The translations under genes were made by a program, and so were the position numbers. DNA of 64,000 bases from positions 992,001 through 1,056,000 of the forward strand of contig NZ_CP034692.1 in the NCBI RefSeq assembly GCF_004114375.1, read 5' to 3'. Below the pieces are notes generated by a model. That model worked only from the letters and a program-made list of their open reading frames with translations, was not told the DNA's origin and searched no databases. Shown here one piece after another: positions 49,698 to 53,923 of this stretch; the first letter of the stretch is position 1; every line of letters begins with the position of its first letter. The stretch comes from Halorubrum sp. BOL3-1 (GTDB taxonomy: Archaea; Halobacteriota; Halobacteria; Halobacteriales; Haloferacaceae).

Positions 49698-49849
49698 ACC
49701 GAGGTGTGAATCGGGCGGAAAATAAAGCGCGGTGGTCCGGCGGAATCGATCCCGGCCGGGGGGAGGATCGGATACATGTAATCGACGCGACCGATGCGGT
49801 GGCGCGTACCTGTGAGGCCGCTCTGCGGCCGAACAGCACGCGCGAGGGA

Positions 49850-49888
49850 GTCGGTGGCGGCCTCCGCTTCGCTCCGGCCGCCACCGAC
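49850..49888. repeat. Perfect 13-base-pair hairpin
   Basis: GTCGGTGGCGGCC at 49850-49862 is matched exactly by GGCCGCCACCGAC at 49876-49888 around a 13-base loop. Such a stem would fold in RNA or single-stranded DNA. No T-run follows, so it is not an ordinary terminator. Confidence 0.65.
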
Positions 49889-49936
49889 GAGGCTGGGGAG
49901 GTGTGAGGCTGCGGTGCTGTTGCTGTGGGTGGGACT

Positions 49937-50049
49937 CGAAGGGGCAGCCGCGAGGACGAAGCACACCGACGTAAGCACTGGAAGGAGTGAGCGAGGCGAA
50001 CGACTGAAGCGCGCAACGGGGTGCGCGAGTCCTCGCGGCTGGGGCTTCG
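49937..50049. repeat. Interrupted inverted repeat bounding a 70-base core
   Basis: The left arm CGAAGGGGCAGCCGCGAGGAC (49937-49957) and the right arm GTCCTCGCGGCTGGGGCTTCG (50029-50049) are inverse copies at 18 of 21 positions. The core between them is purine-rich. The arrangement resembles a small non-autonomous mobile element or a structured RNA. Copy number in the genome would decide. Confidence 0.5.
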
Positions 50050-50259
50050 GTGGTCGTCCCGTCGACGGCAACTGCGTCGTAGCGAGCGGCCGGGGCTTCG
50101 GCGGTGTCCGTGTCGGATCTCGATTTATAAGGAAAATCGTCGTACAGCCGAGCGGCTGCGGCTTTAGAGGTGTTCGTCGTCGATCCGTCAGCAGCTATCT
50201 ATAAGTGTGCGGCTGGGAGCTTCGGAAGTATCACCGTCAACCGCTTATAAACGATAATC
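50035..50259. repeat. Four degenerate direct repeats of about 51-67 bases
   Basis: Units begin with GCGGCTGGGGCTTCGG (50035), GCGGCCGGGGCTTCGG (50086), GCGGCTGCGGCTTTAG (50152) and GCGGCTGGGAGCTTCGG (50219). The last three end in TTATAAG, TATAAG and TTATAAA. The first unit is also the right arm of the interrupted inverted repeat. Spacing is 51, 66 and 67 bases, and the units differ too much for a CRISPR. Confidence 0.6.
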
Positions 50260-51603
50260 TTAGTCGTCGAGCTCCTCGGCGACGGAGTCCGGAATCGCAT
50301 CGGGACTGCCCGCCCCGGCGTCTGCGGGCGCGTCGACCGCCTCGGTCTCGGCCGCCTGCGGCGTGAAATCGGGGTCGAACAGGCGGAGCGCGGTCCGGAT
50401 CGTCTCCCAGTCGTCCTCGCCGGCGGCGTCCCGCAGCGATCGGGTCGGCGCCGCGAGCAGCTGGCCGACCAGGGCGTCCGCCAGGTCCTCGACCGTCTCG
50501 CGCTGCTCGTCGGTCAAATCGCCCTGCGCCTCCAGCTTCGACATCGCGCGGTCGAGTTCCCGCCCCTTCACCCGGTCCGCGCCCGCGTACATCGACGAGA
50601 TGGCGTCGTCCGCGCGCTTGCGCTTGTACGCCTTCAGAATGCGGTCCAGCTCCTCGTCGATGATCGACTCCACCTCTCGGGCCTCCCGTGCGCGGCTCTC
50701 TCGGGTCCGCCGGGTGACGTCTTCGAGGTCGTCGATGTCGTAGACCGTCACGCCCTCGCGGGCGCCGGCCGCCGGGTCGACGTCGCGGGGCTGCGCGATG
50801 TCGACACAGACGAGCCGTCCGGCGCCGTCGACGTACGACGGGTGGACGATCAGGTCCGGACTCCCGGTCGCGGTGACGAGGAGGTCGGCGTCCGGGACCA
50901 CCGCCGGGAGGTCCGCGAGCGACACCGCCTCCGCGGGGGTGTCGACCTCCTCCGCGACGAACTCCGCGTTCGGGATGGTGCGGTTCGCGACGACAATCTC
51001 CGAGACCGCCGTGTCGTCGAGGGTTCGAGCCGCCAGGGTCCCCATCTCGCCGGCGCCGACGACGACGGCCGAGCCGTCGGTCAGGTCGATCTCGCCCGCC
51101 GCCAGCCGGATCGCCGCGGAACCGAGGGAGACGACGCCTTCGTTGATCGACGTCTCCGTCCGGGCGCGCTCGCCGACGTGGAGCGCCTTCGTCACCGCGT
51201 CCTTGAGGACGGGACCGATCCCGCCGGCCGACTTCGACTCTTCGTAGGCCTCCCGAAGCTGGCCGATGATCTGGTCTTCACCGAGCACGAGCGACTCCAG
51301 CCCGGACGCGACCCGCATCAGATGTTCCAGGCTCTCCTCGTGGCCGAGGCGCCGAACCGCGCCGGCGCGAACGTCCGGGGCGAACGTCGACAGCGCCGTG
51401 GCACTGTCGACGGTGCGGTCGGTGACGACGTACGCCTCTGAGCGGTTACACGTCTGTACCGCGAACGCCTCTTCGACCCCTTCGCGTGCGAGCAGGTCCG
51501 AGACGGTCGCGCGGACGCCGTCGCCCCCGGCGACCTCGATTTCGTCGACGGTCGCGTCGGCGTGGGCGACGCTCACGCCGGCGACCGCACCCGTCTCTCT
51601 CAT
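50260..51603 (-). CDS. hemA: Glutamyl-tRNA reductase
   Basis: A 447-residue enzyme that turns glutamyl-tRNA into glutamate-1-semialdehyde, the first step of tetrapyrrole synthesis. The catalytic cysteine is in FAVQTCNRSEAY near residue 50. LVLGEDQIIGQLREAY and the NADPH site VVGAGEMGTLAARTL follow, and the helical dimerisation end is present, with an acidic tail. Start at ATG 51603 (MRETGAVAGVSVAH). It overlaps the sirC gene by four bases, placing it last in the ahbAB-sirC-hemA operon. Confidence 0.96.
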   Translation of the reverse strand: MRETGAVAGVSVAHADATVDEIEVAGGDGVRATVSDLLAREGVEEAFAVQTCNRSEAYVVTDRTVDSATALSTFAPDVRAGAVRRLGHEESLEHLMRVASGLESLVLGEDQIIGQLREAYEESKSAGGIGPVLKDAVTKALHVGERARTETSINEGVVSLGSAAIRLAAGEIDLTDGSAVVVGAGEMGTLAARTLDDTAVSEIVVANRTIPNAEFVAEEVDTPAEAVSLADLPAVVPDADLLVTATGSPDLIVHPSYVDGAGRLVCVDIAQPRDVDPAAGAREGVTVYDIDDLEDVTRRTRESRAREAREVESIIDEELDRILKAYKRKRADDAISSMYAGADRVKGRELDRAMSKLEAQGDLTDEQRETVEDLADALVGQLLAAPTRSLRDAAGEDDWETIRTALRLFDPDFTPQAAETEAVDAPADAGAGSPDAIPDSVAEELDD

Positions 51604-52280
51604 CGGTCGAGTACCCCCTCTATCACGGTGTCGGCCTCTTTCCGTCCGTTGGATCTCCCCTTTTGTAAACCCTTCCAAACCCCCCGGGATCTGACAACGC
51701 GCCGGACCGCTTCCCGACGTTTCTCGGGCGCGACGCCCGCCGATTTCAGCTCCTCGCGGATCTCTCCCGAGAGCGCCGCCATCTCGCCGGCGCCCTCGAT
51801 CTCGGCCTCGATCCGCTCGCGTAACGCCTTCGCGAGCGCGGGGCTCGTCCCTCCCGTCGAGAGCGCCACGGTCACCGGGTCGTCCTCGATCGTCGCGGGC
51901 ACCACGACGCTCCCGGCGTCGCGGCCACCAGAGACGTCCGTGCGGTTGACGAGGATTCCCCGATCGAGCGCGGCCGACTCCGCGGCGGCGTTGACCGCGG
52001 CGTCGTCGGTCGCGGCGACCGCGAGCGCCGGGTCGAGTCGGTCGAGCCAGCCCGCGACATCGTCGGGAGACGGCGCGGCGCAGACCAGTTCGACCGCGCC
52101 GTCGCTGTCGCCGTCTCCGCCCCGCCCACCGGCGAACGACCGCAGCCGCTCGTCGAACGCCGGACTGACGACGACGACGCGGGCGGCGTCGTCGAACCCC
52201 CGCGCCTTCCGTGACCCCACGGAGCCGCCGCCGAAGACGACCACCGTCTCGCCCGCGAAGTCGTGGTACAACGGGGTCAC
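51600..52280 (-). CDS. Precorrin-2 dehydrogenase / sirohydrochlorin ferrochelatase-like protein
   Basis: A 226-residue Met8/SirC-type enzyme. The NAD-binding motif VVFGGGSVGSRKARGF is at residues 14-29, and AATDDAAVNAA plus LVNRTDVSGGRDAGSVVVPA are the family signature with the catalytic aspartate. It oxidises precorrin-2 to sirohydrochlorin and may insert iron, giving siroheme. It overlaps hemA by four bases and ahbAB by four bases, so the three are translationally coupled. Confidence 0.92.
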   Translation of the reverse strand: MTPLYHDFAGETVVVFGGGSVGSRKARGFDDAARVVVVSPAFDERLRSFAGGRGGDGDSDGAVELVCAAPSPDDVAGWLDRLDPALAVAATDDAAVNAAAESAALDRGILVNRTDVSGGRDAGSVVVPATIEDDPVTVALSTGGTSPALAKALRERIEAEIEGAGEMAALSGEIREELKSAGVAPEKRREAVRRVVRSRGVWKGLQKGRSNGRKEADTVIEGVLDR

Positions 52281-53362
52281 GCCGTGTTGCTGTCCGCCCG
52301 GTCCGCGATGCGGATGCCGGTCTTCTTCAGGATGCGCGTCGAGAACAGCGTGTCCCAGTCGTCGGCGCCGACGTCCCAGTGCTCGTCCATCAGCTCCCGC
52401 ACTTCCGCGATCCGGCGCTCGCTTTCCGCCTCGGTCCGACCGTGCGTCATCGCGAAGAAGTTGTACTCCCAGACGCCCGCGTGTCGAGGGCGCTCGTAGC
52501 AGTGCGTGACGAAGTCCAAGTCCGCCACGGCGGGACCGACATCGTCTAACACCGCCTCCGGCACGTTCCAGACCGTCATCCCGTTCTCCGTGTAGCCGAG
52601 CGCGTAGTGATTCGGGATGACGCCGACCCGGCGCACCTTCCCCTCCCGCTCGAACCGCTTGATCGTCTCGGTCACCCAGTCGACGTCGGCGTCCAAGGCG
52701 GCCGCCACGTCGGCGTACGGCGTCTCCGTCACCGGGAGTCCGCCCTGGATCTCGACGACGAGGTCGCGCTCGTCGGGCGTGAGCGTCTCGCGGTCGCTCG
52801 GGGCCGCCTCGGGACCGAGGTCCGACAGGTCGACGTCGCCGTCAGGGACCGGCCCGTCGACGAGGAACTTCGCGCCGACGTGGAACTCCCGTAGCTTCGG
52901 GAGGTTGTACGTCTCCTGGCCCGTGGCGGTCTCGATCTCCGAGAGCACCTCTTCGACGCGGTCGCTCCCGTCCTTCTCCGGGTCCGGGTGGTCCGCAACG
53001 CTCACCACGAACCACATGTTGAGATGGGGATGCTCGCGCTCGTAGTTGTGCGCGACGGCGGTGAACTCGTTGACCGTCTCCGCGATCTCCTCGTACCGGT
53101 CCGGCGGCGCGTGCATCGCCACGAGCGACGCCGCCCCGCCGATCTCCTCGGCGTTGACGAGCGCGCCGAACCGCGAGAGGATTCCCTCCTCGTCGAGTTC
53201 GCGGACGCGCTCGCACAGCGCCGGTCCCGTCACGTCGACGCCGCGCTCGCTGAGCGCGGCCGCCGCCGCGTCGAAGGGGCGTTCCACGACCGGAAAGCCG
53301 CCCTGAAACGCGTTGATGATCGCGCGGTCGAGCGCCGTCAGATCCGCGTCGACCTCCTGCAT
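52277..53362 (-). CDS. Siroheme decarboxylase, AhbA-AhbB fusion
   Basis: A 361-residue protein with two tandem Lrp/AsnC-like halves (each HTH plus ligand domain), residues about 8-165 and 195-345. FPVVERPFDAAAAALSERG and LPVTETPYADVAAALDADV are the paired starts of the halves. In archaea and sulfate reducers AhbA and AhbB form a complex that decarboxylates siroheme to didecarboxysiroheme on the alternative haem route. Here both are one polypeptide. A role as a transcription regulator is less likely given its operon with sirC and hemA. Confidence 0.88.
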   Translation of the reverse strand: MQEVDADLTALDRAIINAFQGGFPVVERPFDAAAAALSERGVDVTGPALCERVRELDEEGILSRFGALVNAEEIGGAASLVAMHAPPDRYEEIAETVNEFTAVAHNYEREHPHLNMWFVVSVADHPDPEKDGSDRVEEVLSEIETATGQETYNLPKLREFHVGAKFLVDGPVPDGDVDLSDLGPEAAPSDRETLTPDERDLVVEIQGGLPVTETPYADVAAALDADVDWVTETIKRFEREGKVRRVGVIPNHYALGYTENGMTVWNVPEAVLDDVGPAVADLDFVTHCYERPRHAGVWEYNFFAMTHGRTEAESERRIAEVRELMDEHWDVGADDWDTLFSTRILKKTGIRIADRADSNTA

Positions 53363-53455: not shown

Positions 53456-53923
53456 TCAGCTGTCCACGTCGCGGGCGATGTCCGCGAGCGACGAGCGAGG
53501 GCCGCGGTTCGCGTCGTACACGGTCCGCTCGCCCGGGATCCGCAGGCCGTACAGCTCTCCGGACACCACCGCGTCGAGGACGACGCTGTCGCCCGGCTCC
53601 CGCCCGTTCGCGTCGAGCCACTCGACCAGCCGGTTCGCTCCCTCCCCGGCATCGCGCGCGAGCCGCCGGTTATCAAACGCGCCGCGGAGGAACCGTCCCC
53701 GCGAGTCGCTCGCGACCCGCGCGTGGAACTCGTCGCGATCGATCGCGACTCGAACGAGATCGCCCGCGCTCACGCGGAGCGCGTCGCAGGAGCCGGACTC
53801 GACCCGCCCGTCGAGCGCGTCGTCGTCCGGGAGCCTGACGCGGGGGCGGCGAGTGCCGCCGCTCCGGGCGAGCGAGACGCGGATCGAGGAGACATCCTCG
53901 CCGTCGGAGGAGACGCGAGGCAT
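53456..53923 (-). CDS. DUF7112 family haloarchaeal protein
   Basis: A 155-residue protein. The family layout SIRVSLARSGGTRRPRVRL, then RVSAGDLVRVAIDRDEFHA, RFLRGAFDNRRLARD and SVVLDAVVSGELYGLRIPGE matches a haloarchaeal conserved family that is often beside ribosomal protein S6e. It is beta-rich, with no membrane segment. The function is unknown. The S6e gene lies eight bases upstream in the same direction. Confidence 0.75.
   Translation of the reverse strand: MPRVSSDGEDVSSIRVSLARSGGTRRPRVRLPDDDALDGRVESGSCDALRVSAGDLVRVAIDRDEFHARVASDSRGRFLRGAFDNRRLARDAGEGANRLVEWLDANGREPGDSVVLDAVVSGELYGLRIPGERTVYDANRGPRSSLADIARDVDS

What the first reader, a model, noticed from the sequence alone, without database searches (positions are those of the whole stretch)
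49740..50260. Non-coding block of hairpins and degenerate repeats upstream of the Nif3 gene and downstream of hemA
A 13-bp perfect hairpin, a 21-base interrupted inverted repeat and four related units with TATAAG tails are packed into 500 bases without a gene. The composition is unlike a coding region, and the layout suggests a mobile non-autonomous repeat family or a structured RNA, possibly widespread in this lineage.
Basis: partly seen in the sequence, partly recalled or inferred. Interest (0 to 1): 0.62.

Follow-up and report, generated by a model that had tools for sequence, protein, structure and literature searches.

The report
Haloarchaea-wide family of hairpin repeats
The gene-free block is one of at least 66 copies in this genome of a hairpin-rich DNA repeat found in most salt-loving archaea tested and nowhere else searched; the two arms of its hairpins have changed together, base pair by base pair, so the folded shape was kept while the sequence drifted, and no description of the family was found in the sources searched.

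Summary
The block is real and is one copy of a large repeat family. A folded core (49796-50050) is followed by degenerate 51-66 bp units carrying TATAA motifs (to about 50250). A covariance model finds 133 matches in this genome, 66 strong, all on the chromosome. It finds the family in 148 of 194 Halobacteria genomes, 56 of 65 genera, with no match listed outside the class. Rfam and literature searches gave nothing. All 82 copies examined lie between genes. The hairpins covary strongly: at 19 orthologous loci in two species, 53 pairs changed on both sides and stayed paired, against 25 single changes. G-U pairs are rare (1.5%, against 10.5% in haloarchaeal SRP RNA), so pairing looks kept at DNA level. 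Of 32 sites compared with relative G016, 27 keep a copy; near-identical copies bounded by terminal inverted repeats exist in another congener. Best reading: a non-autonomous, cassette-like repeat whose working form is a folded DNA strand, rarely moving and mostly inherited. A high-copy structured RNA or a chromosomal binding site are not excluded. The trans-acting factor was not found.

The parts
49796..50050 (+). folded core of the repeat (about 255 nt)
   Evidence: HMM and CM matches in own genome and class; sharp ends where non-orthologous copies share only this stretch
49802..49843 (+). hairpin P1/P2: arms 49802-49809 / 49836-49843, inner stem 49816-49821 / 49825-49830, with CGAG/CGAG-type tandem G-A positions in most copies
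   Evidence: covariation in A1, e.g. T12-A51 / C12-G51
49850..49888 (+). hairpin P3, 13-bp perfect arms 49850-49862 / 49876-49888; sequence-variable, sometimes with extra nested hairpins in other copies
49889..49936 (+). G-rich linker with conserved GAGGCTGGGGAGG and GGGTGGGACT (two GGG tracts at 49927-49929 and 49931-49933)
   Evidence: near-invariant columns in A1 and A3
49937..50049 (+). main hairpin: P4 49937-49941 / 50045-50049, symmetric GGG/GGG internal loop 49942-49944 / 50042-50044, P5 49945-49955 / 50031-50041, inner stems P6/P7 about 49975-50012
   Evidence: 98.6% of cells paired in Halorubrum, all four Watson-Crick pair types in P5 across the class
50035..50250 (+). tail of four degenerate units (50035-50054, 50086-50105, 50152-50171, about 50209-50229) repeating the 3' end of the core
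   Evidence: same tail layout in other copies
50124..50250 (+). TATAA motifs of the tail: 50124-50130, 50198-50204, 50244-50250
   Evidence: positional peak also upstream of the core in 134 copies

Best explanation
It is one copy of a class-wide family of dispersed, non-coding, non-autonomous repeats. The core is a cassette of hairpins around conserved unpaired G-rich motifs. Inferred: a protein supplied in trans (a transposase or recombinase, not identified) acts on the folded single DNA strand or cruciform, occasionally copying or moving the core into an intergenic site, often within or next to TATAA-containing unit arrays. Shown: copies are then inherited for long times at the same place, some sites are lost, replaced or turned round, and the hairpin arms stay complementary while their sequence changes. 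Inferred: complementarity is maintained at DNA level, by selection for the folded strand or by hairpin-templated correction of one arm from the other.
For: High copy number without any ORF. Always intergenic, 0 of 82 inside genes, all four gene orientations. Non-orthologous copies share only the core, with sharp ends: L022/L019 90%, L009/L129 89%. In congener G015 three copies are about 99% identical over about 440 bp at unrelated places, bounded by inverted repeats GATAGCGGGAGTNNGTATTGCA; 71 such ends, 0 in the reversed control, and 20 of 20 fetched TIR loci have a core match, one of them weak. At the same site a copy lies in opposite orientation in a relative; interior inverted in L089 and L045. 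Pairing: 98.6% of cells, covariation 0.279 against 0.135 shuffled; partner columns linked 0.4-1.0, other pairs mostly below 0.1-0.3; 53 compensated doubles against 25 singles at orthologous loci, 115 and 10 expected from independence. Watson-Crick only: G-U 1.5% against 10.5% in SRP RNA; 3-nt loops dominate the perfect hairpins, 88 against 25 with 4 nt, shuffled 12 and 12.
Against: No autonomous partner or target duplication was found. In this genome no recent pair exists (best about 90%), and 27 of 32 sites are kept in G016, so movement is rare or past. No match in viral contigs or phages, where mobile DNA is expected; few on plasmids. The TIRs of G015 are absent from this genome and G016, so the mobile envelope may be a passenger relation. 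TATAA peaks at -15 to -20 of the core would suit a promoter.
Confidence: 0.5

Rival explanations
1. A structured non-coding RNA family, transcribed from the + strand from an upstream TATA box, present in tens of copies, acting in trans or as a cell component.
For: Strong covariation with conserved unpaired motifs; G-U exceeds A-C on the + strand, 58 to 20 in A1; TTTATAA peak upstream of the core in 134 copies.
Against: G-U share far below the SRP yardstick and the excess over A-C is near the background C-to-T bias of unpaired sites, 0.075 against 0.041. The TATA position would start transcripts inside hairpin P1 (inference from usual archaeal spacing). In several genera two copies lie head to head with about 15-27 bp between them, leaving no room for two promoters. 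No Rfam match.
Confidence: 0.27
2. A host chromosomal site, comparable in role to bacterial BIME/REP or other nucleoid, replication or recombination sites, kept for binding of a host protein.
For: All 133 matches of this genome are on the 3.37 Mb chromosome, none on the other three contigs, and the stretch 2.86-3.37 Mb is nearly empty; sites conserved between species; one pair of P4 is G-C in 66 of 68 readable copies of G000 and G016 but A-T in 21 of 23 of G015 and nearly all other genomes, also at orthologous sites, as if matched to a trans factor.
Against: Strand order along the chromosome is mixed, copy number varies from 1 to over 60 among genera and some genomes have none, and megaplasmids of other genera carry copies.
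Confidence: 0.17
3. Neutral inverted repeats kept perfect only by a mutational process (template switching within quasi-palindromes), without function.
For: Strict Watson-Crick pairing, strand-symmetric changes, many G-C to C-G swaps, inverted interiors and nested perfect hairpins.
Against: Unpaired motifs (GGGTGGGACTGAAAGGGG, GGGGCTTTC, GACGYAAGCACC, GAGGAGCGCAGCGAG) are near invariant across the class, which a purely mutational process does not explain.
Confidence: 0.06

Closest known systems
[quoted passage not shown]
   Same: short, non-coding, dispersed, intergenic; in some congeners bounded by about 22-27 bp terminal inverted repeats with near-identical copies
   Different: no TIR around the window copy or in this genome for that sequence, no parent transposon and no target duplication found; conserved internal fold across a whole class
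PATEs / IS200-IS605-derived palindrome elements of haloarchaea (PMC3119063)
   Same: no terminal inverted repeat in this genome, palindromic hairpins, transposase-free, numerous
   Different: palindromes are internal and sequence-variable, not fixed near-terminal ones; no link to an IS605 element was found
Bacterial REP/BIME/REPIN mosaic repeats
   Same: intergenic hairpin repeats in tens of copies, mosaic modules, head-to-head pairs in several genera, vertically kept sites
   Different: about 255 nt core with several hairpins and class-wide conserved unpaired motifs; no RAYT-type partner sought successfully
Integron attC sites (archaeal integrons: PMC9668308)
   Same: sequence-variable but structure-conserved folded arms next to short conserved boxes
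   Different: no integrase, no gene cassettes, different boxes; resemblance only

Membership tests
MITE | terminal inverted repeats | tested here: not met
   none around the window copy; TIR pattern absent from this genome, though present around cores in G015 and others
MITE | TIRs shared with an autonomous transposon | tested here: inconclusive
   20 of 20 fetched TIR loci of G015 hold a core match, one weak; no transposase-bearing version seen, whole genome not screened for longer spacings
MITE | target-site duplication | tested here: inconclusive
   flanks of 23 G015 copies gave no clear duplication
PATE (IS605-related) | near-terminal palindromes similar to an IS605-type element | not tested
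   supplementary palindrome tables of PMC3119063 not readable here
REP/BIME-like repeat | dispersed intergenic palindromic units in tens of copies, never in genes | tested here: met
   66 strong matches, 0 of 82 in genes
REP/BIME-like repeat | associated RAYT (Y1 HUH) transposase | not tested
Rfam RNA family | match to a curated covariance model | tested here: not met
   only a chance hit at E 2.2
structured RNA | covariation with RNA-typical G-U tolerance on one strand | tested here: inconclusive
   covariation yes; G-U 1.5% against 10.5% in SRP RNA
structured RNA | transcript | not testable with these tools
   no expression data
integron attC | R-box sequence and a neighbouring integron integrase | not tested
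   considered by analogy only

The most novel reading that the evidence does not exclude
A Halobacteria-wide, previously undescribed class of structured element, present in up to 60 or more copies per genome, built on a hairpin whose symmetric GGG/GGG internal loop and the preceding GGGTGGG could form a quadruplex-duplex junction in the potassium-rich cytoplasm; it works as a folded nucleic acid recognised by a host factor that co-evolves with one base pair of P4 across all copies of a genome.
Probability: 0.25. Interest if true: 0.85.

Novelty: new variant of a known kind. Interest (0 to 1): 0.62.

Why it matters
A repeat family in most haloarchaea tested, with very strong and unusually pure Watson-Crick covariation, was found neither in Rfam nor in the searched literature. 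It explains many gene-free blocks in these genomes, affects gene annotation and promoter studies, and gives a rare data set in which tens of dispersed copies per genome keep a fold while sequence drifts, at orthologous loci that can be followed between species. It makes testable whether folded single-stranded DNA is under selection or under hairpin-templated correction in archaea.

Tried and rejected
Protein-coding reading: no Pfam match for the ORF across the block and indels between copies are not multiples of three. Known RNA: Rfam gave only a chance hit. Derivation from SRP RNA (a short likeness to the eukaryotic Alu domain was noticed): not supported by Rfam. 5' leader of a gene: orientation to neighbours is mixed. 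Block gene conversion as the source of covariation: neighbouring pairs are unlinked while partners are linked. Plasmid absence as a class-wide rule: rejected, since a class-consensus query finds 45 haloarchaeal plasmid records, whereas the Halorubrum copy found one. Clean empty sites between own genome and G016: none usable, the five sites without a core have other sequence. Strand bias along the chromosome: none seen.

Full report
Observation. Between the start of the Nif3 gene (49697, minus strand) and the end of hemA (50260, minus strand; identities from Pfam) lies a block with no coding potential. Two inverted repeats are part of one fold: the 13-bp hairpin is P3, and the 21-base interrupted repeat is P4 plus P5 of a large hairpin, interrupted by a symmetric GGG/GGG internal loop. 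Both RNA and DNA folding put the + strand 3.2 sd below shuffled energies with the same main hairpins.

Family in this genome. A BLAST search of the own genome gave 62 matches. Forty copies were fetched and aligned. They share a core with a sharp 5' end at GCGGTGGCGCG (window 49796) and a 3' end at GGGGCTTCGG (window 50050). The 3' end is then repeated in a degenerate array with units of 51 to 66 bp, some with TTTATAA. A covariance model of the 3' two thirds (R1) finds 133 matches at E up to 0.01, 66 of them with about 98 bits or more, every one on the 3.37 Mb contig and none on the three others. The last half megabase of that contig has almost none among the strong ones. In 82 copies from several species none overlaps a predicted gene and all four orientations of neighbours occur (genes were predicted by a simple codon model).

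Family elsewhere. All 22 congeners of the first search have it. In the class Halobacteria R1 finds it in 148 of 194 genomes and 56 of 65 genera; copy numbers in other genera run from one to 69. A phylum-wide draw of 120 genomes gave matches only in Halobacteria (non-matching genomes are only partly listed). Two patterns gave nothing in 2.9 million viral contigs, and the phage collection gave nothing. Plasmids: the window copy found one record, a class-like query 45 records with one to four copies each, so the family is chromosome-biased but not excluded from plasmids.

The fold. RNAalifold on 52 copies gives 53 pairs, 29 with changes on both sides that keep the pair. A curated structure for the 3' domain has 98.6% paired cells; covariation is 0.279 against 0.135 in shuffles and 0.02-0.07 when slid. 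Across genera the P5 arm changes completely and stays complementary, with all four Watson-Crick types at most positions, while P4 (GAAAG/CTTTC type), the GGG/GGG loop and the linker GGGTGGGACT stay near invariant. The class alignment is fitted to the model, so its counts lean towards the structure; the orthologue test below does not depend on choosing well-paired copies, though it uses the same model.

How the arms evolve. Flanking segments located orthologous sites in G016. Of 32 sites 27 still hold a core match there, a few weak, displaced or in opposite orientation, and five do not. At 19 of them, 459 base pairs could be compared: 53 changed on both sides and stayed paired, 11 changed on one side and stayed paired, 14 changed on one side and broke, 2 changed on both sides and broke; independence predicts about 115 single and 10 double changes. 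Partner columns about 100 nt apart are tightly linked while columns three bases apart are nearly unlinked. This excludes common descent of blocks as the source of the covariation. G-U pairs make up 1.5% of cells in the class alignment and 2.6% in Halorubrum, against 10.5% in SRP RNA of 30 haloarchaeal genomes handled by alignment and RNAalifold (the SRP structure was predicted, so the comparison is rough, and the element run through that same pipeline gave 5.8%). The excess of G-U over A-C is about what unpaired sites show for C-to-T over G-to-A. Perfect hairpins have mostly three-base loops. Together this points to pairing kept at DNA level; it does not exclude an RNA.

A lineage-wide switch. 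One P4 pair is G-C in 66 of 68 readable copies of this genome and G016, including most tail units, but A-T in nearly every copy of other congeners. The difference also holds at orthologous sites, for example L027/L060, L047/L055, L006/L133, L037/L217 and the Nif3 site. Either short conversion tracts or adaptation to a trans-acting factor could do this; re-amplification is less likely at shared sites.

Movement. Pairs of non-orthologous copies share the core and nothing outside it. G015 holds three copies about 99% identical over about 440 bp at unrelated places. Their ends, GATAGCGGGAGTNNGTATTGCA in inverted order, occur 71 times in G015 and never in the reversed control, and all fetched loci with such ends contain a core match, one weak. 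The same ends are common in G003, G005 and G012 but absent here and in G016. So the core sits in different envelopes: TIR-bounded units in one set of species, TATAA unit arrays in this one. At the Nif3 site the element is present in this genome and six of 28 relatives by HMM, with partial traces in a few more. At other sites it is turned round or its interior is inverted. In Haloarcula and other genera two copies lie head to head with about 15-27 bp between the conserved motifs.

Mechanism. Shown: a class-wide, intergenic, multi-copy element with a fold maintained in place, discrete cores, and TIR-bounded recent copies in a congener. Inferred: the folded DNA strand is the form that is recognised; a trans factor exists; movement is rare in this lineage. 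The alternatives are listed separately. The idea that the four GGG tracts (GGGTGGG plus the two loop strands) form a quadruplex-duplex junction is a suggestion from the sequence only; 41 of 47 class sequences have all tracts in the tested form.

Comparison with the literature. The Haloquadratum study (PMC3119063) describes MITEs, PATEs and small mobile repeats in haloarchaea; none could be matched to this element, and its sequence tables were not available. The survey of 104 structured RNA candidates (PMC2864571) does not mention haloarchaea. Motif strings were not found in any paper searched. Absence from this library is not proof of novelty.

Noticed in passing
G015 genome, e.g. L117-L119, L191-L210: A TIR-bounded unit of about 430-540 bp (ends GATAGCGGGAGTNNGTATTGCA) always enclosing the core; also common in G003, G005, G012 and absent from the window's genome.
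   Followed up: partly
G016:C1:452422-452805 and 962247-962480: Tandem arrays of the tail unit at 63 and 66 bp spacing, up to six copies, next to cores.
   Followed up: no
G000:C3 about 2.86-3.37 Mb: Half a megabase nearly free of strong copies, perhaps an integrated replicon or island.
   Followed up: no
L160, L067, L068: Extra perfect hairpins with three-base loops nested into P3 or the P6/P7 loop (e.g. CTGCCAGAG...CTCGCTGG modules).
   Followed up: no
L089, L045: Interior of the main hairpin inverted relative to its arms.
   Followed up: partly
window 53734-53818 (-): ARAGORN calls a tRNA-Arg (gcg) inside an ORF that scores as coding (53456-53923); possibly a false call.
   Followed up: no
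class consensus GTGGGACTGAAAGGGGC: The motif resembles, from memory, the 3' part of haloarchaeal CRISPR repeats (GTGGGRYTGAAGC); untested and possibly chance.
   Followed up: no
window 51600-53362 (-): Next to hemA lie a siroheme-synthase-like NAD-binding protein and a siroheme decarboxylase-like regulator, a tetrapyrrole gene cluster.
   Followed up: no
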